Assembly (NCBI GenBank): GCA_037042915.1
Contig: CM073197.1
Span: 682,001 to 746,000, forward strand
Source of the DNA: Auricularia sp. M13
Taxonomy: Eukaryota > Basidiomycota > Agaricomycetes > Auriculariales > Auriculariaceae
DNA: 64,000 bases
Direction of reading: 5' to 3'
Shown here: positions 27,701-57,197 of the stretch, one piece after another
Numbering within the stretch: the stretch's first letter is position 1
How the letters are laid out: every line of letters starts with the position of its first letter
Translations under genes and position numbers: made by a program
The notes under the pieces: model-generated
Seen by the model: the letters and a program-made list of their open reading frames with translations, nothing else
What the model was told of the DNA's origin: nothing
The model's database searches: none

Positions 27701-30688
27701 GAACGACCGCAAGCTCCGCGGAAAGGTTTACGCCTTGTCGCCGAAGGAGACACAGGCGATGAACGAGTTCTTGGACGAGAACCTCGCGACGGGTCGTATT
27801 CGGCCGTCCAACTCGCCCATTGCATCGCCGCTTTTCTTCGTCGGCAAGAAGGATGGAGGACTCCGACCGACTATGGATTACAGGAGGCTCAACGACCACA
27901 CCGTGCGGGACTCCTACCCCCTCCCGCTGGTCGCCGACGTCATGACCAAGATCAAGGACGCCCGTTATTTCTCTAAGTTCGACGTCCGATGGGGGTACAA
28001 CAACGTCCGAATCCGACCGGGAGACGAATTCAAGGCCGCGTTCATCACGAGCCGAGGTCTGTTTGAACCCACCGTCATGTTCTTCGGCATGACCAACAGC
28101 CCGGCCACCTTCCAACGCATGGTGGACGACATATTCGGCGACCTTATTCGGCGGATCGTCCTTATCGTCTATATGGACGACCTTTTGGTTTTTACCCGCA
28201 CCTTGGAGGACCATCGGACCGCGGTTCGGGCCGTACTGGAACTGTGTCGGCAGACAGGCCTATACCTCAAACTGGAGAAATGCGAGTTCGAGCAAGCCCA
28301 AGTCAAGTTCCTCGGCCTGGTTGTAGGAAACGGGCAGGTATCCATGGACCCAGTCAAGGTGGAGGCCATACGCCGTTGGAACCCCCCGCGCAACCTGCGG
28401 TTCATGCAGTTCTGTAACTTCTACCGGAACTTCATCCCCCACTTCGCGCACATCACGAAACCCTTCAACCGTCTAACGGAAAAGGGGGTCGTATTCGAAT
28501 GGGGCCCGGAGCAGCAGCAGGCTTTCGAGGACCTTCGCGACGCCGTGTGCAACGACGTTACTCTTCTTCTCCCCCAGGACCGGGCCCCGTTCAGGTTGGA
28601 GACCGACGCATCAGACTACGCGGCAGGAGGAGTCCTCCATCAGGTCATCGACGGGAAGCTACGCCCACTCGGGTTCTTTAGCAAGAGCTTCAGCCCCGCC
28701 GAGCGTAATTACGAGATCTACGACAAGGAGATGCTCGCGATGATGCTTTGCCTCGAACATTGGCGCCACTTCCTCAAAGGGGCCCCGCAGTTCCAGATAT
28801 GGACCGACCATCGGAATCTGCAGTACTTCCGCGAGCCGCAAAGCTCAACCGTCGGCAAGCTCGTTGGCTCACCGAGCTCTCCGAGTATGATTTTACATTG
28901 CACCACCGGCCGGGCAAGACGAACGTCATCGCCGACGAGCTGAGCCGGAACATGCCTAATGAGGGGGCAGAAGACAACGCCGACGTTGTCCTCCTGCAAC
29001 CGGACCGTTTTCGTCAACTCGCCGAGGAGCACAACGGACCGTTGGACGTGATCATTCGGCAACTAGGACTCCGAGACGAGGACCACATCCTGGCCGAGGT
29101 TCGCAAGTACGCCAACGAACGCGACGAGGCAGTCAAGAAGGGCCTGCTTGCGTACCCGCAGGACTTTGTGGAGACGAACGGCGTCGTCGAGTACAAAGGC
29201 CGAGTCTACATCCCGCGTAACCGCCGACTACGTGAACGCATCGTCAGCGCATTTCACGACACACCGATAGCAGGACATCCGGGCAGGTACAAGACTTTGG
29301 AGCTCCTTAACCGGTACTACTGGTTCCCGGCATGACCGCGTATGTTGCGCGTTACGTCCGCGCATGCGACGTCTGCCAACGCTCCAAACCGAGGCACGGA
29401 CCCCTGGCAGGACCCCTACACCCCAACGAGGCGCCGAGTGCTCCGTGGGAGGTCGTTTCCGCCGACCTCATCGGGCCATTGCCCGAGTCGTTTGGCTTCA
29501 ACGCGGTCTTCGTCGTGACCGACCGCCACAGCAAGATGGTCATCCTCTGCCCGACGCATGTTACGGTGACGTCGGAGGGTATAGCGCGCTTGTACCGCGA
29601 CTTCGTCTTCAAACGGTTCGGCCTGTTCAAGAAGCTCATCAGCGACCGCGGCCCGCAGTTCGTGTCGGGATTCGCGAACGAGAGCTCTACAAGCTCCTCG
29701 GTATCGAGGCAAACCCGTCCACCGCGTATCACCCGCAGACCGACGGACAGACCGAGCGGGAGAACGCGGAGATCGAGAAGTACCTTCGCGCATGGACCAA
29801 CGCCCGGCAGGATGACTGGGCCGACTGGCTCGCTATGGCCGAGTTCGCCATCAACAACCGCGCGTCCGAGGCGACGGGTACGTCTCCGTTCTTCCTCAAT
29901 CACGGTCGCCACCCACGTATGGGCGTGGAACCGCGTCGAGCGGTCACCAACGAGTCGGCCGCCCAGTTCGCCCAGCGGATGGAAAGGACCTGGGAGGAGG
30001 CCAAATCCGCGCTCACCAAGGCCGCCGCGTCCATGAAGACACAGTACGACCGGCGCCGAGGTGCTTCGCGACAATACAAGGTCGGCGACAAAGTGTGGCT
30101 CGAAGCGACCAACCTCAAGCTTGCGGTCTCGTCCAAGAAACTGGCCGAACGGCGCTTCGGTCCTTTCAAGATCCTCGAAAGTGTGGGTCATTCCGCCTTC
30201 AAATTGGAGCTGCCGGAGGCGTGGAAAAACCTACACCCCGTCTTCCACGAAAGCCTCCTCTCGCCGTACGTTGCGCCGTACGCCCGCACCAACGCCGCCC
30301 CGCCCCGCCGGCGCCGACCATCGTGGACGATCACGAGGAGTACGAAGTGGAGGAGATCCTGGATTCCAAGAAGCTCGGACGAGGCGTTGTCTACCTGGTC
30401 AAATGGGCCGGCTACGGGCGCGAGCACAACTCCTGGGTCCCCAAGGGAAATCTCGGCAACGCGATCGGCGCCGTCGAGGACTTCGTCCGCCGCAACCCGG
30501 GTAAACCCCAGAACATCCACTCCCTCGTCTTCGACCGTGCCATATTTCCCTCCAACTTCTTCGAGCGCCACCATACCACAGGGATCGACTTCAACATCCC
30601 CGACCCGGTCACCGCGGCCCGCAGGGCGCGGGCCCTCGGCACGACGCTCGTTCGGTCCTAGTAGGGGGGTTATGTTACGGCTCATTCG

Positions 30689-36404: not shown

Positions 36405-37971
36405 TGATCGGGCAGAAATTGACACGCCGGAAAAATCGCGTCCCTTTCAAGATAAAGGCGACATAGCAAGACACAATACAAACTCGAATACAGTACTACC
36501 ACACATCCCGACAACAACGAAGACCGCAAATCAACAAGAACAGCATCCCGAAATGGAACACGCGACACACACCGGCAAGACCCGACATCTCTCCAGCATG
36601 GACAACTTGGCGACAACGGCTCGGCGACCACAATCCCTTCTATTGACCCTCAAGCACGACTCCCGGATTGGCCTTTCGAGACTCCCAGAGTATGCGCGAA
36701 GGACGAACGATCCGTCTCTAAGAGCAGGCGAGCATGTTCCGCGTTCGCCTCCCGAAAGTGTCCCAGCACACGACCGCGTGCTACTCCGGCAAAGACACCA
36801 CAACCACGAAGGTGCGCAGTCGCCCTGGCTGCGAAGGAATATTCTCGACGCCGCTGTCTCCGGTTCCAAGGGATCACCAGCAACCGAGAACGATCCTGAC
36901 TCATTCACCCAAAATCGTTATCGGCACCTGCGCATTCGCGAACACGTCACCCGCTGCGACCTCGGACCATATCCAGACCAGGGTCTAGGGCATCCTTCCT
37001 CTCTACTGTCCCTGAGCATGTGCACCCTGAGAAACCGGGGAAATGCGGAACACGAAACCCATACTAGGGGAATTCCGTCATCGTGATCGCAGCGCACTTT
37101 CCCACGGTCTATGGCGTCATCCAAACGGCAGGGCAGACCGCAGCACACTTGTGGACGATCGGTAGTCTTTCCTCGGAGCAAATTCTGAATCACACGCTCA
37201 CGGGATCGGCCTCTCATTGGCTCCCGAGAATGGATTGCGCAACCCGCAGGCGCGCGCAGTCCGCATGTGACAATCGGGAACTCTTCCTATCGCATGGGCA
37301 TTATCGGTACAGCTCGGGACATGGTCTTGATTGGCTTGGCATTCTCCTGTATAAAACGCGATAGGTAGTTAGGTAGTTTTCTCTTAGCACAGCGGCTCAC
37401 GAGCATCCGGCTCACCAGTAGTTCAGTATCGCGCACTCCGGCGCCCAGTTCTCGTACTCGCACCCGTCCTCCGTTCTAGTCCGTACGCAATCGAAGTCTC
37501 AGTCACCCTCTGCCATCTCCGTTGGCCTCAAGTCTCGTTTTCCCCCTTCCCTCGGTGCGTAGTCGCGACTTCCGTGATTGCACACCATCCTCCCTCCTCT
37601 CCTACTACGACTTCTCCATCCGAACCGTGCTACTTCTGTTCGTCGCGTTCGCACGCAGTCATAGACTTCGCCAGTGCAGCGACGAAGAAAAGACGCACTC
37701 CCGTCTCACAATCCTCCTCTCCCGTGCACCCTCTTCTCGTAGACGACTCCACACGAGTAGTCTCGAGCTCTCCGAATACGGTCGGGTTCCCCCTCGTCTT
37801 TGTGATCCTCACTCGGGTTTTGATCATACACACTCGAGACCATATCCCCGTTTCACCCCTACCTCTATATCTATTCTCTCGTGTGTTGGGTATACTCCAC
37901 CCACCCACCCTTTTGATCTGCGGCTCCTCCCTACTCCTGGATTCATTGTCTTAGTCTTCCCTGGCTGTTCA
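36405..37971 (+). repeat. 5' LTR of element C
   Basis: 1567 bp, TGATCGGGCAG...CTGGCTGTTCA. A TATAAAA box lies at 37350-37356, followed by a CT-rich leader. Partner at 48603-50171. Confidence 0.93.
37350..37356 (+). promoter_or_regulatory. TATA box of element C 5' LTR
   Basis: TATAAAA after a TTGGCTTGGC stretch. The identical box lies at 49548-49554 in the 3' LTR. It would start the genomic transcript about 30 bases downstream. Confidence 0.6.
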
Positions 37972-38412
37972 AAGTGGTGACCACCGCAGGGGAGTCTTTG
38001 AACTAGTCTTACAAACGGTTCAGGCTCCCTGTTTATCCCTTTCACACACCCCCACCACTTACTTGCGTCGAGATTGCGACGGCTTCACCTGGTCCTGCCG
38101 CACGAACTCGTTCTCGTGTTCGCCAAGCAACCATTCCTGTTGCCTCAACATCATCACTCACGCAAGCGAACCCCCATACATCTACATCGGTTTCCTTACC
38201 ATTTTCCCCCCTTTCTTCCCTCTCTTCTCTCACCCTCTCGGAACGAGACCCTGAGTCGGAACCCGAGTTTCATTCCTCACGTTCGCGAGAAGATTCAGAT
38301 CAAGACGTCGCACCCCGTCGTTCTCGATTTGCTTCACTTGCACCACGCACTCCATCACCTGTCAATCGCATACCTCTCGCAGAAGAACATCCGTACTTCC
38401 AAGAGATGGACG

Positions 38413-40740
38413 ATGACGGAAACCCCCAACCCGCCAGGCAATCCAGAAATGGAAGCGGCCTTCGGCAACCTACTGTTCACGTTCATGCAGCGTGCAGTAC
38501 AGAACCTTCCCGCTGTGCCCCCAGGCCAGCAAGCTCCAGCCGCTCAACAAGCACGCGTTCCCCTCCCGTACCCAGACGAGAAGGGCGCGCCGCGATTTGA
38601 CGGTGACCCATACAAAATCGGGACCTTCCTCGAGACGTTCGAAAATCGGGCGCGACTAGCCGCGATTGGAGCCGACCGATGGAAGAAGGTTGTGGTTGAT
38701 TATGTCAACCGTGACACGCGCAATCAGTGGATGCAACTCGAAGAGTTCGGTGATAACTCTACCTGGGAAGAGTTTAAGGCTCAAGTGTTGCGCGCGTATC
38801 CCGAGAACGGTACCATCAAGGAGTATACGTTCGAGGAGCTGAAGGAGAAGATAGATACCTGGAAGGGACGCTCGCTGCGCTCCCCCGAGGATGTCAATCG
38901 GTATACCCGAGAGTTCAACGCTTGTCAAAAGTCGTTGCAGCGTCAGGGCATCGTGCACCAAAAGCAAGAGCTCTACCTGTCGGCCTTTACAGCAGAAGAA
39001 CGCGGGCGTATCGAGAGACGCCTTGAGTGGAAGTTTCCCGACCAGCACTATCACGAACTCGAGATTGATGACATTGCGGACGCGGTTCGCTTCCTGGCAA
39101 AAAACTCGATCGCTGAGATGCCGGGCGCGATTAAACTCGCGTACTCGCCGATTGCAATTGATTCGCGCGAGGTCTCAGTGTCGGTGCAGCCCCCAGCAGC
39201 CGTCAAACGCGAAGGTCCCGATGATCGCCTGATCGCGAGTGTCGCACAGCTCATCGAGGAAAAGTTGGAAGCGCGACTTGGCCCGGCTCGACCAGTGCAT
39301 AATCACACGCACGCAACAGGCCCTAGCGGGTATGCCGCGGGAAGATTTGGTCCTCCCCGAACGGGTGATACCACCTCCCGGATTGGACACGACCGTTGTC
39401 TATTCTGTGACGAATCGGGACACATGATGCGTCAATGCCCCATGCGTCAGGAATACCTGAATGCGGGAAAGATAACGGAAGATCCATTGGGAAGGATGGT
39501 ATTCCCAGGCGGACTGATGATTCCGGGTCCTCGCGAGAAGCCCATTCGCAAGCGTATTGACGAGTACTGGGAGGCTCAGGCACGGTCGCACTACTACGAT
39601 TCCGTGATGCTGTTGGACGGCGACGTTGACCCAGTCGATTACGAAGACGACCAGTTGCTCCCCGAGGAACGCGAGTACCAAGCGTTTCTTATGATGCGCG
39701 AACAAGTGCACAACTACGAGACCACTGGGCGCTTTCGACTGAGCAATAAGAAGTTCGATGGTGTAGAACTTCCGGCGCGACGCTGGGGGCCAGCCTCGCA
39801 GCAGAAGAACACGGAACGGGTACCCGGAATCCTCCCCGTCCCGGCAGCTGCTCGCGCCAGCACCCCCGTCAGTCAACAAGCTCCACCTCAACGCGCACCA
39901 GAGAGGCCGGCCGATCTGCAGGTCCCAATTCCACTCGACGAGGTAGCTCGCAAACACGCCGACCTGACCAAGAAAGCCGCAGACAAGATGGAAGAAGCCG
40001 GCGTGACATTTCGTAACAAGGCTCCCGCAACCGACGATTCGATGGCCGAACAACTGTTCACGCGCGTACTCGAGCTTCCAATCACGACAACAATTCGGGA
40101 ACTGCTCGCAACTTCAGGAGACATCCGCCGCTTGGCACAGAAGTACACTACGACGAGGCGAACTCCTGTGAGCGAAGTACATATCATCGACCAGGACGAC
40201 GGCGACGACGGCGACGTCAATGACGTGTTTCAAGTTGTTGCGTGGGAACAATCGCTGCAGCGGACACCTTCGGGAGACTTCGCGGCGCACGAGTCGTTAC
40301 CGTTGATGGTCATCACCGCCGACATCGAAGGAGTCCCCATCGAGACAATCATCGACACAGGGTCGACTATCTGCTGCATGAGTGATCGCGTATGGAGGAA
40401 GATTGGCTCACCCGTGTACTCGGAAAAGTCAACCAACATGCGCGACGCGAATGGCAACGTAGCCGGCACCTTGGGCGCGATTGTCGACCAAGAAGTCATC
40501 ATCGGAGGACTCAAGTTCTTCATCACCATACACGTCGTCCCGAACGCGCCATTCAGTCTCATTCTCGGAACACCCTTCTGCGCAATCGCCTCGATCGAAA
40601 TCTCGTACCGCCCTTCGTCCGAAATGGTGCTCAAAATCACCGACCCGAATACGGACAAGACCGTGCTTATTCCCGGATCCGCCAAGCCGCGCCGCGCTGT
40701 CGCGTTCGCGCGCACTGTAGACTCGCCTAAGGATTTTTGA
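38413..40740 (+). CDS. Element C gag-protease frame
   Basis: Open frame with a gag core (YKIGTFLETFENRARLAAIG, WEEFKAQVLRAYPE), a CCHC knuckle CLFCDESGHMMRQC near 39405, a middle linker, and an aspartic protease with IDTGSTICCMSDRVW near 40350 and LILGTPFC near 40560. ATG 38413 is chosen because it opens the gag-like part; the frame is open further upstream but is low-complexity there. The stop TGA (38-40 of the 407xx block) overlaps the next ATG in TGATG. Confidence 0.8.
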   Translation: MTETPNPPGNPEMEAAFGNLLFTFMQRAVQNLPAVPPGQQAPAAQQARVPLPYPDEKGAPRFDGDPYKIGTFLETFENRARLAAIGADRWKKVVVDYVNRDTRNQWMQLEEFGDNSTWEEFKAQVLRAYPENGTIKEYTFEELKEKIDTWKGRSLRSPEDVNRYTREFNACQKSLQRQGIVHQKQELYLSAFTAEERGRIERRLEWKFPDQHYHELEIDDIADAVRFLAKNSIAEMPGAIKLAYSPIAIDSREVSVSVQPPAAVKREGPDDRLIASVAQLIEEKLEARLGPARPVHNHTHATGPSGYAAGRFGPPRTGDTTSRIGHDRCLFCDESGHMMRQCPMRQEYLNAGKITEDPLGRMVFPGGLMIPGPREKPIRKRIDEYWEAQARSHYYDSVMLLDGDVDPVDYEDDQLLPEEREYQAFLMMREQVHNYETTGRFRLSNKKFDGVELPARRWGPASQQKNTERVPGILPVPAAARASTPVSQQAPPQRAPERPADLQVPIPLDEVARKHADLTKKAADKMEEAGVTFRNKAPATDDSMAEQLFTRVLELPITTTIRELLATSGDIRRLAQKYTTTRRTPVSEVHIIDQDDGDDGDVNDVFQVVAWEQSLQRTPSGDFAAHESLPLMVITADIEGVPIETIIDTGSTICCMSDRVWRKIGSPVYSEKSTNMRDANGNVAGTLGAIVDQEVIIGGLKFFITIHVVPNAPFSLILGTPFCAIASIEISYRPSSEMVLKITDPNTDKTVLIPGSAKPRRAVAFARTVDSPKDF

Positions 40741-43700
40741 TGCGGAGAGAACGCGCCTCTCCGTTCCGCAATATACAACCCCTGTTCTTCTATGATCGTC
40801 TTGTGGGCGTTTCGCAAGATGTTCGCAAAAGGTTCAAGGACCCTGTCATCCTTGCGATGTTTGGGTTCACGCTGCTAATGTCACTTCCCAAAGAGTTAGT
40901 TCCCGCTTGGGTTCGCGCTCTTGTTCTCGGGATTGCGGCAGGACACGCGGGTACCTTGATTCTTCAGCAGCCGGAAACAGCTGCGAGGATAGAAGAAGTT
41001 GTGGAGGACAAAAACCCTCGGCGACGTCGACGGTCGCGCAGAGGTCGCAAGAGAGGTAAAGCAAATGTACTAACCACCCCGACCAATGATGACCCCTCTG
41101 AGGGAGGGGATGGTGTACAAGAAGCTTATCCCGACGAGCGACTTCTTGAGAACCGACTCCGGTATCTCTACGGCTTTGGATTCACGGAACAAAACGGCAA
41201 CGGAAACGGGACGGCCCAAACAATGCTCATAGAGGATCTGCCTAACCCGGAGACGGAAGGCAAATCGGACGATCAGCCTCAAGATCAGCAACACGCAATT
41301 ACGATAACATCCACGACCATTCCGATTGAGGTCTACACGCTCGATTCGGACAATCGGTTTGCGCAGCCAAGACCATACATCTTTCTCCTCAATGAAGATG
41401 GCACCCGAGTCGTCCCGCGAACGGAAGAAGACACGTGGGAACACGACGAAGACTTCGCTATGACGGTAACACTGACGATCGGCGACGACGCGCACTTCGC
41501 AATGCCTCCACGACCAGTCAAAACGGTACCGCCGCTACGATTGTCACGTGACGCGCGCAGCTTTCGGCACCCGCAAGCCATTCCCATGGGCATCAGCGAA
41601 CTCGAGTTTCCGTCACGCAAACCGGCTGGCATTGACACTGGCATCTTCGCGACTGTCTTTAACGTGATGGAACGGAGACAGCCGAAGGGCGAAGACAAAC
41701 AGCGACCCGGGAACGCGGCAGGACTCGGACGGAGGCCCTACAAGTCCGCGTTACTCAAGGTACACCCGCAGAACGCTCCGATGCCAGAGGAATACCGGAT
41801 AGTACGACGACGACCGTCTGATCCGCTGATGACCTTGCCAGTAATCGGCGCCAAACCCGCGGATTTCGTGCCCACGGCATATATGACGACGGAACGAATG
41901 GCTGGCTTCAAGATTGAGGACTCTGCGCATTTGTGGGACGAGGAAAAGAAGCTGTTCAAAGCTATCGTCGCTGCCAATGAAACCGCGTTTGCATGGACGG
42001 AGGCGGAACGAGGTCGCTTTCGATCAGACTACTTTCCGCCTGTCAAACTCGCCGTGCTTCCGCATGTGCCATGGACCAAACGTCATATGCCGATACCACC
42101 CTCTATTCGCGACAGTCTCATCGAGCTGTTAAAGGAGAAGATCAAAGCCGGCGTATATGAAGAGTGCAACTCCTCGTATCGCAACAGTTGGTTCTGCGTC
42201 GTGAAGAAAGATGGCAAGAGTCTTCGCATAGTGCATGATTTGCAGCCGCTTAACGAGCATACCATTCGGGATGCGGGTCTCATTCCCCAGCCTGATGAGT
42301 TCTCGGAAGAGTGCGCGGGATTTACGCTATTGTCGGTACTCGACCTATTCTCATCTTACGACCAGCAACTGATTGATGAGGCTTACCGTGACCTGACGGC
42401 GTTTCAAACACCTGTCGGGGTACTACGGAATGTTGGATTGCCAATGGGGTACACGAACTCAGTCCCCATTCAGCAAGCAAACGTAACCTTCATCCTGCTC
42501 GACGAGATTCCGCGATTCGCGAACTGCTTTATCGACGACGTTGTCGGGAAAGGCTCGCGGTCGTACTACAAAAACGACGACGGGACGTACCAGACGCATC
42601 CGGACAACCCGGGAATACGGCGTTACGTATGGGAACACGCGATGACGCTAAACCGGATCCTTCATCGTTTGAAGAAGGCGGGTGCTTCCGTTTCGGGAAA
42701 GAAGGCAATCATTGCACAGCCTGAGGCAGTCATTGTGGGGTATCGTTGCAACTTCGAAGGGAGACATCCTGAGAAGGGAAACGTCAAGAAGATACTCGAC
42801 TGGCCGACGCCGCAGAATGTGACACATGTGTGCGCTTTTCTTGGGACGTGTGGCGTATCGAAACTGTGGATCAAAGACTTCGCGCGTGAGGCTCGGCCGC
42901 TGTACCAGCTCACCAAGAAGGACGCAGAGTTCGAGTGGACTCCCGAGTGCGAGGCAGCGATGCAGCGGCTCAAGAAGTTGGTCACGGAAGCCCCAGGACT
43001 CAAGCCGATTGACTACGCGTCATACAACGATGTCATACTCGCAGTCGACTCGTCCGTCATTGGTGTTGGCTACATTCTGCTACAACTAGGCGACGACAAG
43101 AAGCGGTACCCATCGCGGTATGGATCCATCACGTGGAACAATCGCGAAAGTCGCTATTCGCAGGCGAAACTCGAACTACATGGGCTGTTTCGATCATTAA
43201 GGGCTGTGCGTGCATACATTTATGGCGTACACTCCTTGGTGGTAGAAGTCGACGCGAAGTACATCAAGGGAATGCTCAACAACCCGGACATGCAGCCCAA
43301 CGCGACTATCAACCGTTGGATTGCGGGCGTTTTGTTGTTCAACCCGAGAATAGTGCATGTTCCTGCGACGAAACACACGGGAGCGGACGGACTTTCACGA
43401 AGACCGGCAGCACCTGAAGACGAGGACGAGCCCGACGATGCAGACGAGTGGTTGGACAAGGCTTTGGGATTTGCGATAGAACTCGAAAACGCGCGAAGAC
43501 CCGTCTTCGATCACGTGTTTGAGAGCACTCCGCGACTCGCAAAGGCGTTGGGAATTCAGCTCAACGTGCCCCAGCGGCCACGTCATCAACAGGAAGTCTT
43601 CATTTTCGACGTATACGCGACGCTGCGTAGTGGTGCGAGGACGCAACCATCCAAAGTACCCCGCGGAGAGGAGTCAGACTCCGACAAAAACGCGCGCGAA

Positions 43701-43889
43701 AACGACGAAAATGAAGATTCTGGCGACGAATCCGTCTCAGGCGAGGAGGACGAACAAGAGCAGCAAGAAGGACGTCCCGCAAGTCCCGAACGCGAAAAGG
43801 AGCAATCGCAAGAGCCAATGCAAGAGGCGAACGCGGAAACTCGGTCGGGAAATAGCAACAGAACCCGAAGGAGAAGTCAAGATTCCTAG
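40740..43889 (+). CDS. Element C reverse transcriptase-RNase H frame
   Basis: It begins with ATG sharing one base with the gag stop (TGATG at 40738-40742), which suggests termination-reinitiation, a mechanism known from some retroelements. The first 70 residues are unusual: two hydrophobic stretches (VILAMFGFTLLMSLP and WVRALVLGIAAGHAGTLIL) followed by a very basic run. RT follows with IVHDLQPLNEHTIRD, a catalytic FIDDVVG near 42530 and WPTPQNVTHVCAFLG. RNase H has LAVDSSVIGVGY and KHTGADGLSR. The tail is acidic. Confidence 0.8.
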   Translation: MRRERASPFRNIQPLFFYDRLVGVSQDVRKRFKDPVILAMFGFTLLMSLPKELVPAWVRALVLGIAAGHAGTLILQQPETAARIEEVVEDKNPRRRRRSRRGRKRGKANVLTTPTNDDPSEGGDGVQEAYPDERLLENRLRYLYGFGFTEQNGNGNGTAQTMLIEDLPNPETEGKSDDQPQDQQHAITITSTTIPIEVYTLDSDNRFAQPRPYIFLLNEDGTRVVPRTEEDTWEHDEDFAMTVTLTIGDDAHFAMPPRPVKTVPPLRLSRDARSFRHPQAIPMGISELEFPSRKPAGIDTGIFATVFNVMERRQPKGEDKQRPGNAAGLGRRPYKSALLKVHPQNAPMPEEYRIVRRRPSDPLMTLPVIGAKPADFVPTAYMTTERMAGFKIEDSAHLWDEEKKLFKAIVAANETAFAWTEAERGRFRSDYFPPVKLAVLPHVPWTKRHMPIPPSIRDSLIELLKEKIKAGVYEECNSSYRNSWFCVVKKDGKSLRIVHDLQPLNEHTIRDAGLIPQPDEFSEECAGFTLLSVLDLFSSYDQQLIDEAYRDLTAFQTPVGVLRNVGLPMGYTNSVPIQQANVTFILLDEIPRFANCFIDDVVGKGSRSYYKNDDGTYQTHPDNPGIRRYVWEHAMTLNRILHRLKKAGASVSGKKAIIAQPEAVIVGYRCNFEGRHPEKGNVKKILDWPTPQNVTHVCAFLGTCGVSKLWIKDFAREARPLYQLTKKDAEFEWTPECEAAMQRLKKLVTEAPGLKPIDYASYNDVILAVDSSVIGVGYILLQLGDDKKRYPSRYGSITWNNRESRYSQAKLELHGLFRSLRAVRAYIYGVHSLVVEVDAKYIKGMLNNPDMQPNATINRWIAGVLLFNPRIVHVPATKHTGADGLSRRPAAPEDEDEPDDADEWLDKALGFAIELENARRPVFDHVFESTPRLAKALGIQLNVPQRPRHQQEVFIFDVYATLRSGARTQPSKVPRGEESDSDKNARENDENEDSGDESVSGEEDEQEQQEGRPASPEREKEQSQEPMQEANAETRSGNSNRTRRRSQDS

Positions 43890-43899
43890 AGGCGCAAAA

Positions 43900-45303
43900 G
43901 GACGACGACGCGACAAAGAGCTACCGACCATCTTCAAGTTCCTACAGTCGGGCGACCGCGACCCGAATATGCCGCGCGACAAGTTTCACGCGTTGGTACG
44001 CAAGGCATCTCAGTATTTCGTACTTGGCGACGTACTCTACCGGCGAAGCGAAGACGGAAGGCACAAGGCAGTGGTATTCGACAACGACAAGCGACTAGAG
44101 AAGATGAAGCTCGCGCACGACGAACTTGGGCACAAGGGATACTTTCCGGTTCGCGCACACGTGCGAGAACGGTATTTCTGGCACGATATGGACACGGACA
44201 TTCGCTGGTATCTACGCACTTGTCATCAGTGCCAGATTCGCCAATTGGGGCACCAGCGGATTCCGCAAACGGTGCCATTCGTACCCGGCCTATTCTTCAA
44301 GTGTCACATTGATGTGATGCTCATGTCGGTAATGTCCGAAGGCAAGAAGGCGTTGGTGCAGGGCAGATGCGCGACAGCCAGCTTCCCGGAATGGAGAGCT
44401 CTCGCGAAAGTGACTGGCGTCACTCTCGGGCGATTCATTTTCGAAGAGATACTTTGCCGCTGGGGAGTTCTCGCAGAAATCGCTACCGATAACGGCGCGG
44501 ACGTCGTAAAGGCAGTCGATTATCTCAGTGAGAAACACGGGATCCGTCATATTCGCATATTGGCGTACAATTCGCGAGCAAATGGCATAGTCGAGCGCAA
44601 GCACTTTGATGTGCGCGAATCACTCATGAAGGCGTGTGGTACCGAACCACAGAAGTGGGCCTCTAAGGCACACTCAGTCTTCTGGGCGGAACGCGTGACG
44701 GTAAAGAAGCACCTCGGAATGTCACCGTATCGAATGGTACATGGATGCGAGCCCGTGCTCCCTCTCGATTTCGAACAGGCGACCTGGCTTGTCCCGCCAA
44801 TGCAACCCCTGATGACAACGGAGGAGCTTATTGCAACACGGGCGCGTCAGCTGGAGAAATGAGACGAGGACATTGCTGCGATGAGGGAACGAGTGCGGCA
44901 GTTCCGCGCAAAAGCGGCTGAGCGTATGCTCAAGAGCTATCACGGACTCAAAGCACCGGGCAACATTGCGCCAGGCACGCTCGTACTGGTCAAGAACTCG
45001 AGAATCGAACTAGAGCACAATCGGAAACCAAAACCGAGATGGCTAGGGCCGTTTATTGTGCTCAGGAGACATTCGGGAGGATCATACATTTGTGCGGAAC
45101 TCGACTCTGCAGTAATTGTGGATCGAATTGCGGCAGCACGTGTACGCCTCTATCACGCTCGTGCAAATGTGCGTTACAACGTCAAGCAAATCGTGGAGAA
45201 TACGCCGCAATACGTTTGGGAGCGGGCGAACGCGCCGCAACCAGTCGACGACGAAGAAGATGAAACCGAGCTCGACACCGACCCCGGGACCAACGACAAT
45301 TAA
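43900..45303 (+). pseudogene. Element C integrase region
   Basis: Zinc-binding HHCC part (HDELGHKGYFP, CHQCQIRQLGHQ, about 44115-44250), core with CHIDVML, EIATDNGADVVKAV and YNSRANGIVERKHFDVRE (44300-44620), and a C-terminal part with a GTLVLVKNSRIELE...RWLGPFIVLRRH block typical of gypsy integrases. The frame differs from that of RT. The region as a whole is well preserved but not fully continuous. Confidence 0.75.
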
Positions 45304-45572
45304 CGAAGTTCATTCATGCCAACACTCTCGGCTCGGCAAAAATATTTATTTTCGACTTTTGTTACACTCAGTAAGTAGTTCCGGAGCCTTTTTGCACTCA
45401 TTTTTGCGTTTCAGACTTCAAGTTCACTCTGTACGACAAAGACGAGACAAGTTCGATGTGATTGCGGGCGACTTTGGTCGCAAACGAGTACAAAAGGGGC
45501 GCGGAGGCCAATTCGGCGAGAACGACATACGGGACGCCACATGCGAAACGCGAGAAGCTACCTACGGGACAC
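45304..45572. other. Junction between integrase and antisense genes of element C
   Basis: About 270 bp between the convergent integrase and antisense gene X1. It contains a T-rich stretch near 45336-45366 that could hold the 3' ends of both transcripts. No gene is seen. Confidence 0.5.
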
Positions 45573-47137
45573 TCAAGAAGCCTTGCTCATCGGACGCGAG
45601 GGCACCTTCGGGGTCGCCAAGGGGGCGAGCTCGTCGACGAGCTCTCCTTCGGCATCAGCCTCAGTGCCGGCGGCGATGGCGCGCTCCCGCGCGAGCTTCG
45701 CGTGGATTTCCTTCATTTCCTGCGCGAACCCGGGCAGGGTGGCACGGATCTCCGACAAGTCGAGTTCGAGGGCCTTGAGGCGCGTCGAGTGTTCCGTGAG
45801 GAACGCGAAGGGCATCATGAGAGCGTTGACGAGCTCCTCGTCGCGCTTGAAGAAGTGCTTGAGCAGCAACTCGAAGTCGAGGTAGCCTGTGTTGCGAGCG
45901 ATGTTCTCCTGAGACGAGGGCGACACCCTGTACGGCACGAACTTCTCGTCGCGCAGGAATGGCGGCGCGAGGATGTCGGGCTTGAAGTCCGAGTCCGTCT
46001 TCGTGCGCTTGCGGGGAGAAAGCGTGGACGAACCCGTGATCGGCGACGAGTCGCGCTTTCGCTTCTGCAACAAGTGATCAGTGGAATATCGAGGCGCGGG
46101 AAAGACGAAGGACGAACCGAGGCGCTCTCGACGTACTCGTCACCGTCCTCGGGCTCCGGCGTGGGCGTGTGCTCGGCCTCCTCGTCGCAGAGCGTGAAGC
46201 AGACGCGCTTCGAACCGTGGCTGCGCCAGCAGGCGTAGCAGGCCTTCGTGTCCGCCCACTGGAGGCAGTTGCGCCACTGGAAGTTGGGCGCGACTTGAGA
46301 GCGACTTTCCCTAAGCCGCGGCACCACTCGCAGAGGAAGGCGGACATGATGGTCGTCGACGTGTGCGGGTAGAACGAGAGCATGAGGAGCTTCTTCTCCT
46401 CGGGGAACTGGCGCAGCGGGGAAGGCATCTCGTCGAGCTCGACGCCGAGGCTACCGTACAGCGAGCGGATCGTAAGCAGCGCGTTGCGGTGCGCAGAGCC
46501 GCAATCGAAAGTGTACGCCCGAGATCGAGGAGGCGAGTCGCTTGCCGCTTCCAGTGATTGTAGGCGCGAGCGGGACGAGGGCCCTGGTCGTTGTGGCAAG
46601 CGCCGGCCGCGAACTTGTATGCCAGAAAGAGGCGCGCAAGGAAGATAAAGGCGGGGCGGTGCTCCTCGTCGAGCTCCTCGTAGCACTCGGAGGGGATGAC
46701 GCAGTACGCGGCCAACATGAAGCAACACACGGGTTCCGAGTCGTCGTAGCCAGCCAGCGATCTGCGAGACCGTCAGCATAAACGCGCGCTTCCAATATCG
46801 TACCACGTACCGGGAAGTGGGAGAGAATCTCATGCTCGTTCTTGCCGGTGCGAATGACCGTGAGGAATAGCACGAACTTGTTGGCGTCAAGGAGAGCGTC
46901 ACGGCGCGGCTGGTCGCCGTGGCAGCAGACGAAGGACGAAGGAAGCGAAGAGTCCAACACGGGCGGGTCGTCAGGAGCGTTCCAGTATTCAGCGAGGGCC
47001 GCGAGATCCACGGGCACGGGCTCCTCCACGGGCGGAGGCGGTGGCTCCACAGCGCGCGCGACGACCACCAGCCTTGGCCTTGGCCTTGCCCTTGCTGTTC
47101 TTCGGGGTCCTGTCTTACGAGAGCGGCGGCTGGACAT
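45573..47137 (-). CDS. Antisense accessory gene X1 of element C (Cys-rich, unknown function)
   Basis: Not recognised. On the minus strand the block starts at ATG 47137 (MSSRRSRKTGPRRTARA, basic). It continues with AEYWNAPDDPPVLDS and DANKFVLFLTVIRTG, then a helical part rich in aromatic residues (ECYEELDEEHRPAFIFLARL). Next come Cys motifs CEWCRG and C-x6-C-x2-C near 46230-46340 (CLQWADTKACYACWRSHG) and an acidic stretch. The last part (KRKRDSSPITG to a stop at 45573) has a nuclear-signal-like basic cluster and an amphipathic helix. Intron-like boundaries are visible, for example GTACGT...GCTGAC...GCAG at 46762-46810. The coding segments change frame, as in a spliced gene. A TATAAG box lies 41 bases upstream of the ATG. 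Not gag- or pol-like. Whether it is fully intact is unclear. Confidence 0.55.
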
Positions 47138-47177
47138 GAGGGAAAACGCAATGAGAGCAATGCGGGACAGGAACCAA

Positions 47178-47183
47178 CTTATA
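47178..47183 (-). promoter_or_regulatory. TATA-like box upstream of X1
   Basis: TATAAG on the minus strand, 41 bases before the X1 ATG at 47137. The same spacing is found for X2. Confidence 0.5.
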
Positions 47184-47504
47184 TCCTCAGACAGGGGTAT
47201 TCAGTTCTAGCCCTTCACAAACGACTTGGACGAATTCGGGACGGTCAGTACGGTTTGCCGTGCAACGGCAGCCTCAGAACAAGCAGCCTGCGGTCCCGAA
47301 TGTTCCACGCAACGAGTACCATTCACCCGAGTCAACTTCAGCAAACTCAACTCGCGACAAACACGTGGCGGTGCAAGAAATCAATGCTATTCCGCGGGAA
47401 CACTTCCAAGAACATGTCAACTGTCAAACAACTCGACCCTGAGGCGCCGCGCGCGTTACTCCGGACGGCCGAACATCGGGACACTGGACCGCCACGCACT
47501 CGGA

Positions 47505-48509
47505 TCAGCAATCAAGTCGCGAATACGAAGACGGAACGCACTCAAAAGTCAAGGCCTCGAAAGCATCAGCATGTTCACCAGTGGCGTACAGGCCGCCGTT
47601 AATGTTCTGACGCGAAAGAACGTCGTGGACGATCTCGGCACGGATGTCTTCAGGGATGAAGCCGTCAGTACGGGAGAAGGTCGCGAAGCGGAACGGGTTC
47701 CGTTCATCAAGCGCCCCATATTCCCAAAGGCTAGCGGTAGCTGTCGGGATTTCGGTGGTGAACGGCTTGATAACGTTGAACATGGCCATGAGACCCGCAT
47801 ACGAGGAAGGACGAACGGAGCGGAAGTCGCGAGCGACGTTCGCGTGGATGCGCTCGAGTACCTGATACTGCGTTCCAACGAACTTGGCGTATTCGCGATA
47901 GATGCGCGCGAGTCCGGCGTAATGGGCAAGAATCAGAAGCGTGTTCTGCGCGGGCGTTCAGCCTCTTCAAACGCTATTCCGAATACGGCGACTCACGGAG
48001 ATTGCGGGCCAGTGCGAGATGAAGAACCCGACTTCATCGGCGTGCGCTTGGTCAGGAGCGCTCACAAGGCGCCCGAGCTGCGTACTGATATCCTGAGCAA
48101 CGGTGGCATAGAAGTCAAACGCAAGGACAGTAAACTGTCCCGGGTAGACCTTTGCGGGTTCCGGCATCTCGGGAGTCGGGGCGTTTGGATCGAAGTACGT
48201 CGAGAGACCAGCCAAGGCAGGGTTCCATCCAAGGGCCATTGAGTCTTGAGATGCGAGCGTCTGGATAACTTTGGCGGCCGTTTTGGTGATGCTATCAAGG
48301 GCGCGATAATTCTCGGACACCGCGCGCGAGATGGCCGCGAGCTGAGCATGTTGCGTGGCGATAGCCTCGTCGATTTCGCGATGACGCTCAACAGCGCGAC
48401 GGGCGACGTGGGCGAACGACAGGAACGTCGGGAAGACGTAGACCTGAGAGAGGGAGGTATTGACGAAAGACTGCATGATGAATGCGGGTTGGAGGACACG
48501 ACTTAGCAT
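47505..48509 (-). CDS. Antisense accessory gene X2 of element C (two exons, unknown function)
   Basis: Not recognised. The minus-strand frame runs from ATG 48509 (or, better, ATG 48476, MQSFVNTSLSQVYVFPTFLS) to 47997. It is interrupted by a 51-nt intron at 47946-47996 (GTGAGT donor, GCTGAAC branch, GCAG acceptor) and continues to the stop at 47505. Both segments have clear coding character: exon 1 is helical (REIDEAIATQHAQLAAISRA, ENYRALDSITKTAAKVIQTL) and exon 2 is mixed (LARIYREYAKFVGTQYQVLE, FRFATFSRTDGFIPED). Reading stays open across both, giving up to 317 residues. There is no signal peptide, transmembrane segment or nuclease motif. A TATA-like box lies 42 bases before ATG 48476, which favours that start. 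It ends about 90 bases from the 3' LTR and transcribes towards pol. Confidence 0.65.
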
Positions 48510-48517
48510 TCCGAGGA

Positions 48518-48525
48518 CCTTTTAT
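48518..48525 (-). promoter_or_regulatory. TATA-like box upstream of X2
   Basis: ATAAAAGG on the minus strand, 42 bases before ATG 48476 and inside the element just left of the 3' LTR. It is too close to ATG 48509 to serve it. Confidence 0.5.
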
Positions 48526-48602
48526 GGCGACGCGATTTTGCGGGTCCCTGATGCTTCGCAATTTGATGCACAGGGACGTGCACATTCAAAGTACCCCGCG
48601 GA

Positions 48603-50171
48603 TGATCGGGCAGAAATTGACACGCCGGAAAAATCGCGTCCCTTTCAAGATAAAGGCGACATAGCAAGACACAATACAAACTCGAATACAGTACTACCAC
48701 ACATCCCGACAACAACGAAGACCGCAAATCAACAAGAACAGCATCCCGAAATGGAACACGCGACGCACACCGGCAAGACCCGACATCTCTCCAGCATGGA
48801 CAACTTGGCGACAACGGCTCGGCGACCACAATCCCTTCTATTGACCCTCAAGCACGACTCCCGGATTGGCCTTTCGAGACTCCCAGAGTATGCGCGAAGG
48901 ACGAACGATCCGTCTCTAAGAGCAGGCGAGCATGTTCCGCGTTCGCCTCCCGAAAGTGTCCCAGCACACGACCGCGTGCTACTCCGGCAAAGACACCACG
49001 ACCACGAAGGTGCGCAGTCGCCCTGGCTGCGAAGGAATATTCTCGACGCCGCTGTCTCCGGTTCCAAGGGATCACCAGCAACCGAGAACGATCCTGACTC
49101 ATTCACCCAAAATCGTTATCGGCACCTGCGCATTCGCGAACACGTCACCCGCTGCGACCTCGGACCATATCCAGACCAGGGTCTAGGGCATCCTTCCTCT
49201 CTACTGTCCCTGAGCATGTGCACCCTGAGAAACCGGGGAAATGCGGAACACGAAACCCATACTAGGGGAATTCCGTCATCGTGATCGCAGCGCACTTTCC
49301 CACGGTCTATGGCGTCATCCAAACGGCAGGGCAGACCGCAGCACACTTGTGGACGATCGGTAGTCTTTCCTCGGAGCAAATTCTGAATCACACGCTCACG
49401 GGATCGGCCTCTCATTGGCTCCCGAGAATGGATTGCGCAACCCGCAGGCGCGCGCAGTCCGCATGTGACAATCGGGAACTCTTCCTATCGCATGGGCATT
49501 ATCGGTACAGCTCGGGACATGGTCTTGATTGGCTTGGCATTCTCCTGTATAAAACGCGATAGGTAGTTAGGTAGTTTTCTCTTAGCACAGCGGCTCACGA
49601 GCATCCGGCTCACCAGTAGTTCAGTATCGCGCACTCCGGCGCCCAGTTCTCGTACTCGCACCCGTCCTCCGTTCTAGTCCGTACGCAATCGAAGTCTCAG
49701 TCACCCTCTGCCATCTCCGTTGGCCTCAAGTCTCGTTTTCCCCCTTCCCTCGGTGCGTAGTCGCGACTTCCGTGATTGCACACCATCCTCCCTCCTCTCC
49801 TACTACGACTTCTCCATCCGAACCGTGCTACTTCTGTTCGTCGCGTTCGCACGCAGTCATAGACTTCGCCAGTGCAGCGACGAAGAAAAGACGCACTCCC
49901 GTCTCACAATCCTCCTCTCCCGTGCACCCTCTTCTCGTAGACGACTCCACACGAGTAGTCTCGAGCTCTCCGAATACGAATTCGGGTTCCCCCTCGTCTT
50001 TGTGATCCTCACTCGGGTTTTGATCATACACACTCGAGACCATATCCCCGTTTCACCCCTACCTCTATATCTATTCTCTCGTGTGTTGGGTATACTCCAC
50101 CCACCCACCCTTTTGATCTGCGGCTCCTCCCTACTCCTGGATTCATTGTCTTAGTCTTCCCTGGCTGTTCA
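48603..50171 (+). repeat. 3' LTR of element C
   Basis: 1569 bp partner of 36405-37971, with about four differences including a 2-base indel near 49980. Confidence 0.93.
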
Positions 50172-53429: not shown

Positions 53430-56400
53430 CCGCAGTGATTTCCGCGCGATCCCTGTGGGAAGACGACGGTGTGCCCTCCGTACCGAATACAGATGAACGT
53501 CTTGTCGATACGCACACCGAGCGTGAACACCTAAGACTCGCCGAGGTCCGACCCTCGGCCCTAAGGCAAATGAACATACCCCTCACCCTCACCTCCCTCG
53601 ACACTGGAGAACGGATCCCGGCCAAGGCTCTTTTGGATAGTGGATGCACGACCTCAAGTGTGGACCAGGCGTTTGTCAAACGCCGACAGCTTACAACCCA
53701 AGCCGCAGCCGTCGTTCGGACCGTCTACAACGCCGACGGCTCGGTCAACGGATTTATCAAGGAGTACGTCGAACTCCTTGTGGTTGTGCGCGACGCACGC
53801 GGCCGCGAACACCGCGACTTTCCGGTCGCCAACCTTGGTGGAAAACACGACCTCTTCCTAGGATACGACTGGTTGGTGGAGCACAACCCGGAAATTGACT
53901 GGCCGAAGGGGGCGCTCACGTTCACCCGCTGCCCGCCTCGCTGTGGTATGCCGAACCCGTTGCCGAGCTCGGCCCGCTACCTCGCCGAGGACTTCGCCTC
54001 GCTCGCCGACGCTTTGGAGTTCGCGGCCGACGACGAAGAAGAGTACGTTCGGGCTTTCGAGTCCATCTCAACCCGCATTGAGCAAGCCGCCAAACCCGCC
54101 GTTGTCGCCAACATCCCCGAATACTACCGCGAGTACGCCGACGTGTTCGAAAAGAAGGAATTCGACAAGCTACCCCCCCCCATCGTCGGTGGGACCACGA
54201 AATCAACCTCCGACCCGGATGGGAGAACGACCGCAAGCTCCGTGGAAAGGTTTACGCCTTGTCGCCGAAGGAGACACAGGCGATGAACGAGTTCTTGGAC
54301 GAGAACCTCGCGACGGGTCGTATTCGGCCGTCCAACTCGCCCATTGCATCGCCGCTTTTCTTCATCGGCAAGAAGGATGGAGGACTCCGACCGACTATGG
54401 ATTACAGGAGGCTCAACGACCACACCGTGCGGGACTCCTACCCCCTCCCGCTGGTCGCGGACGTCATGACCAAGATCAAGGACGCCCGTTATTTCTCTAA
54501 GTTCGACGTCCGATGGGGGTACAACAACGTCCGAATCGGACCCGGAGACGAATTCAAGGCCGCGTTCATCACGAGCCGAGGTCTGTTCGAACCCACCGTC
54601 ATGTTCTTCGGCATGACCAACAGCCCGGCCACCTTCCAACGCATGGTGGACGACATATTCGGCGACCTTATTCGGCGGATCGTCCTTATCGTCTACATGG
54701 ACGACCTTTTGGTTTTTACCCGCACCTTGGAGGACCATCGGACCGCGGTTCGGGCCGTACTGGAACTGTGTCGGCAGACAGGCCTATACCTCAAACTGGA
54801 GAAATGCGAGTTCGAGCAAGCCCAAGTCAAGTTCCTCGGCCTGGTTATAGGAAACGGGCAGGTATCCATGGACCCAGTCAAGGTGGAGGCCATACGCCGC
54901 TGGAACCCCCCGCGCAACCTGCGGGAGGTCCGGTCGTTCATGCAGTTCTGTAACTTCTACCGGAACTTCATCCCCCACTTCGCGCACATCACGAAACCCT
55001 TCAACCGTCTAACGGAGAAGGGGGTCGTATTCGAATGGGGCCCGGAGCAGCAGCAGGCTTTCGAGGACCTTCGCGACGCCGTGTGCAACGACGTTACTCT
55101 TCTTCTCCCCCAGGACCGGGCCCCGTTCAGGTTGGAGACCGACGCATCGGACTACGCGGCAGGAGGAGTCCTCCACCAGGTCATCGAGGGGAAGCTATGC
55201 CCACTCGGGTTCTTCAGCAAGAGCTTCAGTCCCGCCGAGCGTAATTACGAGATCTACGACAAGGAGATGCTCGCGATGATGCTTTGCCTCGAACATTGGC
55301 GCCACTTCCTCAAAGGCGCCCCGCAGTTCCAGATATGGACCGACCATCGGAATCTGCAGTACTTCCGCGAGCCGCAAAAGCTCAACCGTCGGCAAGCTCG
55401 TTGGCTCACCGAGCTCTCCGAGTATGACTTTACAATGCACCACCGGCCGGGCAAGACGAACGTCATCGCCGACGAGCTGAGCCGGAACATGCCTAATGAG
55501 GGGGCAGAAGACAACGCCGACGTTGTCCTCCTGCAACTGGACCGTTTTCGTCAACTCGCCGAGGAGCACAACGGACCGTTGGACGTGATCATTTGGCAAC
55601 TAGGACTCCGAGACGAGGACCACATCCTGGCCGAGGTTCGCAAGTACGCCAACGAACGCGACGAAGCAGTCAAGAAGGGCCTGCTTGCGTACCCGCAGGA
55701 CTTTGTGGAGACGAACGGCGTTGTCGAGTATAAAGGCGAGTCTACATCCCGCGTAACCGCCGACTACGCGAACGCATCGTCAGCGCATTTCACGACACGC
55801 CGATAGCAGGACACCCGGGCAGGTACAAGACTTTGGAGCTCCTTAACCGGTACTACTGGTTCCCCGGCATGACCGCGTATGTTGCGCGTTACGTCCGCGC
55901 ATGCGACGTTTGCCAACGCTCCAAACCGAGGCACGGACCCCTGGCAGGACCCCTACACCCCAACGAGGCGCCGAGTGCTCCGTGGGAGGTCGTTTCAGCC
56001 GACCTCATCGGACCGTTGCCCGAGTCGTTTGGCTTCAACGCGGTCTTCGTCGTGACCGACCGCCACAGCAAGAAGGTCATCCTCTGCCCGACGCATGTTA
56101 CGGTGACGTCGGAGGGTATAGAACGCTTGTACCGCGACTTCGTCTTCAAACGGTTCGACCTGTTCAAGAAGCTCATCAGCGACCGCGGCCCGCAGTTCGT
56201 GTCGGGATTCGCGAACGAGCTCTACAAGCTCCTCGGTATCGAGGCAAACCCGTCCACCGCGTACCACCCGCAGACCGACGGACAGACCGAGCGGGAGAAT
56301 GCGGAGATCGAGAAGTACCTTCGCGCATGGACCAACGCCAGGCAGGATGACTGGGCCGACTGGCTCGCTATGGCCGAGTTCGCCATCAACAACCGCGCGT

Positions 56401-57197
56401 CCGAGGCGACGGGTACGTCTCCGTTCTTCCTCAACCATCGTCGCCACCCACGTATGGGCGTGGAACCGCGCCGAGCGGTCACCAACGAGTCGGCCGCCCA
56501 ATTCGTCCAGCGGATGGAAAAGACCTGGGAGGAGGCCAAATCCGCGCTCACCAAGGCCGCCGCGTCCATGAAGACACAGTACGACCGGCGCCGAGGTGCT
56601 TCGCGACAATACAAGGTCGGCGACAAAGTGTGGCTCGAAGCGACCAACCTCAAGCTTGCAGTCTCGTCAAAGAAACTGGCCGAACGGCGCTTCAGTCCTT
56701 TCAAGATCCTTGAAAGTGTGGGTCATTCCGCCTTCAAACTGGAGCTGCCGGAGGCGTGGAAGAACCTACACCCCGTCTTCCACGAGGGCCTCCTCTCGCC
56801 GTACGTTGCGCCGTACGCCCCGCACCAACGCCGCCCCGCCCCGCCGGCGCCGACCATCGTGGACGATCACGAGGAGTACGAAGTGGAGGAGATCCTGGAT
56901 TCCAAGAAGCTCGGACGAGGCGTTGTCTACCTGGTCAAATGGGCCGGCTACGGGCGCGAGCACAACTCCTGGGTCCCCAAGGGAAATCTCGGCAACGCGA
57001 TCGGCGCCGTCGAAGACTTCGTCCGCCGCAACCCAGGTAAACCCCAGAACATCCACTCCCTCGTCTTCGACCGTGCCATATTTCCCTCCAACTTCTTCGA
57101 GCGCCACCATACCACAGGGATCGACTTCAACATCCCCGACCCGGTCACCGCGGCCCGCAGAGCGCGGGCCCTCGGCACGACGCTCGTTCGGTCCTAG
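53430..57197 (+). pseudogene. A2 pol region (protease, RT, RNase H, integrase, chromodomain)
   Basis: Protease LLDSGCTTSSVDQAF near 53630. RT with PTMDYRRLNDHT, FGMTNSPATFQRMVDD and YMDDLLVFTR (about 54390-54720). RNase H with [16 protein letters not shown] and WTDHRNLQYF. Integrase with CDVCQRSKPRHGPL, DRGPQFVSGF and HPQTDGQTERENAEIEKYL (about 55900-56310). The C-terminus carries a chromodomain (EYEVEEILDSK...WAGYGREHNSWVP, about 56870-56980), known to target chromoviruses to marked chromatin. Fossil with about three breaks. Confidence 0.85.

What the first reader, a model, noticed from the sequence alone, without database searches (positions are those of the whole stretch)
45573..48509. Two intron-bearing genes on the antisense strand of a young gypsy element
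Element C carries, between integrase and 3' LTR, two genes (X1 and X2) running opposite to gag-pol. X2 is open over two exons with a textbook 51-nt intron. X1 shows Cys pairs and intron-like boundaries. Introns on this strand would survive retrotransposition, because the genomic RNA is the other strand and the splice signals are not read there. That explains how an intron-bearing gene can be kept in a retroelement. Neither product resembles gag, pol or an obvious envelope. They could be captured host genes, silencing suppressors or regulators of sense transcription.
Basis: partly seen in the sequence, partly recalled or inferred. Interest (0 to 1): 0.88.

Follow-up and report, generated by a model that had tools for sequence, protein, structure and literature searches.

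The report
Intron-bearing antisense genes in fungal retrotransposon
A young fungal retrotransposon carries, on its opposite strand, two intron-bearing protein genes that look about as strongly conserved as its own polymerase, and one of them belongs to a gene family that also rides in a DNA transposon of another class.

Summary
Element C is a 13.8-kb Ty3/Gypsy element (LTRs 99.7% alike) with two minus-strand genes between integrase and 3' LTR: X2 (2 exons, 306 aa) and X1 (3 exons, 488 aa; frameshifted in the window copy, unbroken in 5 of 11 full copies). Across copies the predicted exons show dN/dS 0.24-0.48, like RT-RNaseH (0.33) and integrase (0.34); introns vary about twice as much, and all copies that hold an intron keep its splice sites. 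X2 was found only in element C and one divergent partial copy; it has two relatives (45%, 41%) in Auricularia subglabra. X1 belongs to a Cys-rich family with 17 distant relatives here; three lie inside one KDZ DNA-transposon family, four inside a 5.3-kb repeat, and the first intron sits exactly ten codons before a shared motif in all four genes compared. Host capture of X1 is therefore not supported; kinship with DNA-transposon cargo is. Role (nuclear regulator or anti-silencing factor), transcription and splicing are inferred. Antisense extra genes in Gypsy elements are known (Grande, Retand, Boty brtn); intron-bearing, constrained ones tied to a DNA-transposon family are a new variant.

The parts
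36405..37971 (+). 5' LTR of element C (TG...CA)
   Evidence: 1569-column match to the 3' LTR, 99.7% identity; 4-bp flanking repeat GCGC
38074..40740 (+). gag and protease reading frame
   Evidence: gag-asp_proteas 9.4e-10; zf-CCHC weak, below cut-off
40737..43889 (+). reverse transcriptase and RNase H reading frame
   Evidence: RT_RNaseH_2 3.1e-18; RVT_1 2.5e-5 but below its cut-off; dN/dS 0.33 over 41700-43600
43519..45303 (+). integrase (open frame 43519-44862; the same frame runs on to 45303 after one stop in this copy)
   Evidence: Integrase_H2C2 1.4e-14; dN/dS 0.34 over 43891-45300
46811..47137 (-). X1 exon 1 (327 nt here, 330 in several other copies)
46762..46810 (-). X1 intron 1, 49 nt, phase 0, GTACGT...CGCAG
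   Evidence: same place and phase in L050, L051 and L052
46118..46761 (-). X1 exon 2, Cys-rich core (frameshifted in the window copy)
46065..46117 (-). X1 intron 2, 53 nt, GTTCGT...TGCAG (GTATGT in L022)
45573..46064 (-). X1 exon 3, basic stretch, then what looks by eye like a coiled coil
47997..48476 (-). X2 exon 1, ATG 48476, 126 bp from the 3' LTR
47946..47996 (-). X2 intron, 51 nt, GTGAGT...CGCAG
47505..47945 (-). X2 exon 2
48603..50171 (+). 3' LTR of element C

Best explanation
X1 and X2 are functional accessory genes of a Ty3/Gypsy element, transcribed from the minus strand (probably from the 3' LTR or the 126 bp beside it for X2, and from the 367-nt gap for X1) and spliced there. Because the packaged RNA is the plus strand, the introns are not removed and are copied into each new insertion. 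X1 has six cysteines in a CxxC...C...CxxC...C arrangement, invariant in the four family members aligned, a basic stretch and a probable C-terminal coiled coil; it belongs to a family also carried by a KDZ DNA transposon, entered the element as intron-bearing DNA (or left it that way), and most likely works in the nucleus on the element's own expression, as a regulator or anti-silencing factor. Shown: gene models, introns in all copies that hold them, constraint like pol, family link. Inferred: transcription, splicing, zinc binding, nuclear role.
For: Gene models and per-copy frames; dN/dS X2 0.34, X1 0.37, pooled p 3.4e-7, per exon 0.24-0.48, RT-RNaseH 0.33 and integrase 0.34 in the same copies; intron variant density 13/153 against exon 99/2384, p 0.015; X2 homologues P0001, P0002 at 45% and 41%; X2 found only in element C and its divergent partial copy; X1 relatives at 17 places with E <= 1.2e-4; KDZ transposase 4.8 kb upstream on the same strand at 3 of those 17, all in one block shared at 99% that ends at L050:7243, past the X1-like gene; phase-0 intron ten codons before VCC in 4 of 4 genes compared.
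Against: No transcript data. Both genes are unbroken in only 2 of 11 full copies. Indels shared by two or more copies fall in exons too (48321, 47108, 47061, 46656, 46521, 45698-45697), so some copies with broken genes may have been multiplied, unless these are assembly errors. X1 has no match in Pfam (exons 1-2 at E <= 10; exon 3 at E <= 1), in the PDB or in the protein collection (only the 8000 best word-sharing candidates were scored). The X2 homologue's model is poor, pLDDT 42. CpG-weighted pooled dN/dS rises to 0.56. The KDZ link is one element family; the other 14 relatives have no KDZ within 5 kb in a capped list.
Confidence: 0.62

Rival explanations
1. Passenger cargo: the genes were picked up once before the family amplified and are now neutral, transposing only because they lie between the LTRs.
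For: Frames are broken in many copies, some by indels shared between copies; no transcript evidence.
Against: dN/dS as low as in pol, no stop-making substitution in the part tested (one stop, in two copies, cuts the last four residues of X2), and protein homologues of 302 and 280 aa at 45% and 41% in another species.
Confidence: 0.12
2. Nested DNA transposon: the X region is a KDZ-derived element that jumped into the Gypsy element before it spread, and its genes serve or once served that transposon.
For: X1 relatives are carried by a KDZ element and by another multicopy block.
Against: No transposase domain in the frames of the X region that were scanned; no terminal inverted repeats enclosing it, only short imperfect pairs, although some KDZ elements lack such repeats (Kyakuja, PMC12730594, passage); X2 was not found in those elements; element-C pol lies near the X region in 14 of 15 places.
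Confidence: 0.12
3. The antisense RNA itself, as double-stranded RNA source or interference, is what matters; the reading frames are incidental.
For: Antisense transcription is discussed as a control device in LTR elements (PMC7264820, passages).
Against: Codon-level constraint in the predicted minus frames and interspecies protein homology of X2 need a protein.
Confidence: 0.06
4. A plus-strand extra gene (env-like) occupies the region and the minus frames are its shadow.
For: Plus-strand open frames exist; plus frame 1 beats the minus frame in X1 exon 1 (0.41 against 0.48) and ties in exon 3.
Against: The best-scoring plus frame holds stops in four of the five exons (9, 4, 6 and 2; none in X1 exon 1); four plus frames scanned have no Pfam match above cut-off; X2 homologues are annotated proteins in the minus reading.
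Confidence: 0.03

Closest known systems
brtn, antisense gene of Boty-like Gypsy elements in Botrytis cinerea (Zhao et al. 2011, Virology; cited in PMC7264820 and PMC8365987, passages seen; the paper itself not seen)
   Same: Fungal Gypsy element with an antisense extra gene between pol and 3' LTR.
   Different: One gene named there, two here; ascomycete; the passages seen say nothing about introns in it; sequence not compared.
Antisense ORFs of plant Retand, Grande and RIRE2 elements, TRP28 domain in Retand (PMC11963269, PMC7264820, passages seen)
   Same: Place and orientation; kept in most copies; proposed DNA-binding or nuclear regulators; own promoter in Grande.
   Different: No TRP28 match in the X1 and X2 sequences scanned; the word intron does not occur in the main text of either paper; plant aORFs were said to lack similarity to other transposons, X1 does not.
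HTLV-1 hbz and related aph genes (PMC10186651, passages seen)
   Same: Antisense, spliced, read from the 3' LTR side; nuclear regulator of sense transcription.
   Different: Exogenous animal retrovirus; bZIP protein; no sequence relation tested.
KDZ DNA transposons, which carry accessory genes such as TET/JBP (PMC12730594, PMC12477816, passages seen)
   Same: One KDZ family here carries an X1 relative with the same first intron.
   Different: DNA transposon; the gene is on the transposase strand there, antisense to pol here.
VANC anti-silencing proteins of VANDAL transposons (PMC10398659, PMC5735166, search listing only)
   Same: Possible functional parallel: transposon-encoded factor against silencing.
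   Different: Plant DNA transposons; no sequence relation tested; the parallel is speculation.

Membership tests
Ty3/Gypsy LTR retrotransposon | paired LTRs with short target duplication | tested here: met
   LTRs 99.7% identical, GCGC flanks (4 bp, could be chance)
Ty3/Gypsy LTR retrotransposon | order protease, RT, RNase H, integrase | tested here: met
   (RVT_1 below its cut-off, RNase H and H2C2 above)
antisense accessory ORF class (aORF-3R) | coding frame antisense to gag-pol between pol and 3' LTR | tested here: met
antisense accessory ORF class (aORF-3R) | kept in most copies with constraint like other element proteins | tested here: met
antisense accessory ORF class (aORF-3R) | antisense transcript | not testable with these tools
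   no RNA data held
Retand TRP28 proteins | TRP28 / Transposase_28 domain (PF04195) | tested here: not met
   no Pfam match: X1 exons 1-2 at E <= 10, X2 exon 1 frame and P0001/P0002 at E <= 1
brtn of Boty | sequence homology to brtn | not tested
   brtn sequence not at hand
X1-like family shared with a KDZ element | CxxC...C...CxxC...C core, VCC..LAAY motif, phase-0 intron ten codons before VCC | tested here: met
   features derived here from 4 genes, not from a published definition
X1-like family shared with a KDZ element | X1 relative lies within the KDZ element's bounds | tested here: met
   block L050 1-7243 at 3 places; left end not fetched
retroviral envelope | env domain or sense orientation | tested here: not met
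   antisense; no Pfam env match
captured host gene | single-copy locus outside the element | tested here: inconclusive
   X2: only two weak matches outside element C, E 0.38 and 3.95, none from P0001; X1: relatives exist outside, two multicopy carrier blocks defined, 9 of 17 contexts not seen

The most novel reading that the evidence does not exclude
X1-like genes are a mobile regulator module that has moved between KDZ DNA transposons and a retrotransposon as intron-bearing DNA; in the retrotransposon it could persist only antisense, where introns act as a strand mark that lets accessory mRNA be spliced while genomic RNA stays whole.
Probability: 0.3. Interest if true: 0.82.

Novelty: new variant of a known kind. 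Interest (0 to 1): 0.62.

Why it matters
A retroelement should lose introns as it copies itself through RNA. Here three introns persist in every copy that holds them, in genes that face the other way, so the element is a natural test of that idea. The plant review seen calls the origin of most antisense accessory genes unknown (PMC7264820, passages); X1 gives one case with relatives in another transposon class and a shared intron. If X1 is an anti-silencing or regulatory factor, two unrelated transposon classes would be using one protein family in the same host.

Tried and rejected
X1 donor at 46136 (GTACGT) rejected because it puts exon 3 out of frame; donor 46117 accepted. The AlphaFold model of the X2 homologue P0001 was too poor to search with (pLDDT 42); no fold search was run. 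X1 protein searches found nothing. A second frame in L052 and the antisense frame of element D were compared with X2: no relation; X2 against the X1 family: no relation. The integrase-domain search scored only 150 of 208 candidates and does not list element C, so it was not used for linkage; the pol search was. TET/JBP beside an X1 relative (1 of 17) is treated as weak.

Limits of the counts. The opposing plus frame also looks constrained in some exons, so frame choice rests on stops, splice joins and homologues as well as dN/dS. Searches tested X2 only to 47560; one search covers it to 47508, which adds 5 nonsynonymous and no synonymous changes. A stop at codon 303 in 2 of 11 full copies (L010, L016) lies in that tail. 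L022 was left out of the variant counts; compared pairwise it gives X1 exon 2 22 syn / 22 nonsyn (0.39), exon 3 17 / 24 (0.58), X2 exon 1 part 7 / 2 (0.11). Intron positions in the X1 relatives were found by asking for an open join: L050 offered two donors for one acceptor (50 or 74 nt, both phase 0), L052 was found only after dropping the branch-point demand and offered two acceptors, of which I took the phase-0 one. A second intron in L050 was looked for and not found.

Full report
Setting. The window is G000:C5:682001-746000 of an unnamed 52.1-Mb genome of 14 contigs. That it is a relative of Auricularia is inferred only from X2's homologues in A. subglabra. Element C runs from 36405 to 50171 with LTRs 99.7% identical over 1569 columns and a 4-bp flanking repeat; protease, RT, RNase H and integrase domains lie in the usual order. 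The LTRs say it is young; in the window copy pol is split over two frames and X1 is frameshifted.

Gene models. On the minus strand X2 reads ATG 48476 to 47997, intron of 51 nt, 47945 to stop 47505. X1 reads 47137-46811, intron 49 nt, 46761-46118, intron 53 nt, 46064-45573. The second X1 intron had two candidate donors. Only the one at 46117 joins the frames; it gives an uninterrupted 487-488-residue protein in 5 of 11 full-length copies, and the 90%-identical copy L022 has GTATGT exactly there. Length changes shared by two or more copies fall in all three introns (46109, 46789-46788, 47980), but also in exons (48321, 47108, 47061, 46656, 46521, 45698-45697), so indels do not by themselves favour the models, and some shared ones break X1 or X2.

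Copies. The DNA search gave 16 matches that I read as 14 insertions: 11 full length and 3 partial. Of 15 X places compared with the element's pol, 14 have element-C pol on the same contig within 6.9 kb, 12 of them at 1.7-3.2 kb; the exception is the divergent L022 (18 of the 55 rows were typed in as pol pieces, 17 of them within 3.9 kb of an X place). X2 as a protein was found nowhere else: the two matches at other places have E 0.38 and 3.95, and the A. subglabra homologue finds only the same places.

Selection. Variants were counted over 14 sequences from 13 insertions (L022 left out; not every sequence covers every site). dN/dS by exon in the predicted frame is X2 0.24 and 0.26 (exon 2 cut at 47560), X1 0.48, 0.45 and 0.27. 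The window and 10 loci give 0.33 for RT-RNaseH (one stop-making change) and 0.34 for integrase in their true frames and 1.1 to 3.2 in the false ones. Among the 25 alternative frames of the five exons, one is lower than the predicted frame (X1 exon 1, plus frame 1, 0.41) and one ties (X1 exon 3, plus frame 1, 0.27). Full-length counts are X2 20 syn / 17 nonsyn and X1 33 / 31; pooled dN/dS is 0.36 (p 3.4e-7), rising to 0.56 (p 0.0024) if CpG transitions are weighted 20-fold. Introns vary at 13 of 153 sites, exons at 99 of 2384, p 0.015. The 126 bp between X2 and the 3' LTR vary at 2 sites, against 33 of 636 in the other two non-coding stretches, p 0.052, which at most hints at a promoter or priming site.

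Introns and retrotransposition. The X2 intron is present with its splice sites in 13 of 13 sequences that hold it, X1 intron 1 in 12 of 12, X1 intron 2 in 12 of 12 of the C type. Since the copies arose through RNA (inferred from LTR structure), that RNA was not spliced at these places.

X2. Two homologues, P0001 (302 aa, 45%) and P0002 (280 aa, 41%), both from A. subglabra, cover 94-95% of it. No Pfam match for its exon 1 frame or for the homologues, no PDB match below E 0.48, and an unusable AlphaFold model of P0001 that is all helical.

X1. Search of the own genome with exons 1 and 2 gave, besides element C, 17 places with E <= 1.2e-4 and 24-32% identity. Three were fetched (L050, L051, L052). 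Aligned with X1 they share VCC..LAAY and six cysteines in a CxxC...C...CxxC...C pattern; downstream frames of L050 and L051 have a basic stretch followed by what looks by eye like a coiled coil, though the join to that frame in L050 was not found. The first intron sits exactly ten codons before VCC, phase 0, in all four (C 49 nt, L050 50, L051 56, L052 53; choices among candidates are told under Tried and rejected). At 3 of 17 places a KDZ transposase lies 4.8 kb upstream on the same strand (spacings 4841, 4839, 4819 by subtraction). The three share one block at 99% that ends at L050:7243, beyond the X1-like gene, and L050 also holds a frame with an Ulp1-like end (Pfam E 0.03, below cut-off; motif recalled), so the gene is cargo of a KDZ element. 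The L052 gene lies in a 5257-bp block present at four places whose class I could not name; its ends show no target duplication or clear inverted repeat, and a KDZ match lies 8 kb from one of the four, outside the block and on the other strand. L051 has a TET/JBP frame 2.6 kb from its X1 frame (E 2.5e-6, below cut-off); its near relative at C6:685185 has none listed. The other 9 contexts were not seen.

Mechanism. I think the proteins act in trans in the nucleus: X1 has basic stretches, a probable zinc module and a coiled coil, as expected of a DNA-binding regulator, and sister genes ride in a KDZ element, a group known to carry DNA-modifying TET/JBP cargo (PMC12730594, passages). X2 may be its partner; nothing tests that. 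Regulation of the LTR and escape from silencing are both possible and not separated by my data.

Comparison with the literature. [quoted passage not shown] passages). Spliced antisense genes are known in deltaretroviruses (passages). My searches for antisense, intron-bearing accessory genes in fungal or other LTR retrotransposons listed no paper that I recognised as describing one; the listings show only the top rows, and most subscription papers are outside that library, Zhao et al. 2011 included.

A second element. The nearest pol relative (65%, C12:198433) has LTRs of 744 nt at 99.9% and, in its own integrase-to-LTR stretch, an antisense frame joined by a 54-nt intron with donor GTATGT and branch-like CTGAC; its start is not settled. 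Only one full copy was found, so no selection test is possible, and the frame compared is unrelated to X2. It hints that antisense intron-bearing genes may recur in this clade.

Noticed in passing
L053:2772-3434 (-), in C12:200800-206800: Related Gypsy element (pol 65%) with 744-nt LTRs also has an antisense frame with a 54-nt intron between integrase and 3' LTR, plus a 247-aa sense frame.
   Followed up: partly
L052:2037-7293: Unclassified 5.26-kb repeat, four copies at 98-99%, carrying an X1-like gene and a second possible gene upstream (2456-3040).
   Followed up: partly
L051:874-1458 (-): TET/JBP dioxygenase-like frame (below Pfam cut-off) 2.6 kb from an X1 relative.
   Followed up: partly
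window 27696-30582 and 54220-57118: Two copies of another repeat, 96-99% alike, 26.5 kb apart.
   Followed up: no
window 9135-9503 and 9635-10003: 369-nt inverted repeat, arms 94% complementary, 131 nt apart.
   Followed up: no
window 5827-6084: Faint KDZ transposase match (26.0 bits, cut-off 26.6), with equal ones on C1 and C7.
   Followed up: no
G000:C7:3287095-3291420 and C11:1338334: One element-C copy seems to have X1 split by about 4.3 kb of inserted DNA; another has X1 exon 1 next to pol, as after a deletion.
   Followed up: no
window 45573-48476 across copies: Many single-base G or C indels, many private to one copy, some shared; decay or assembly error cannot be told apart here.
   Followed up: partly
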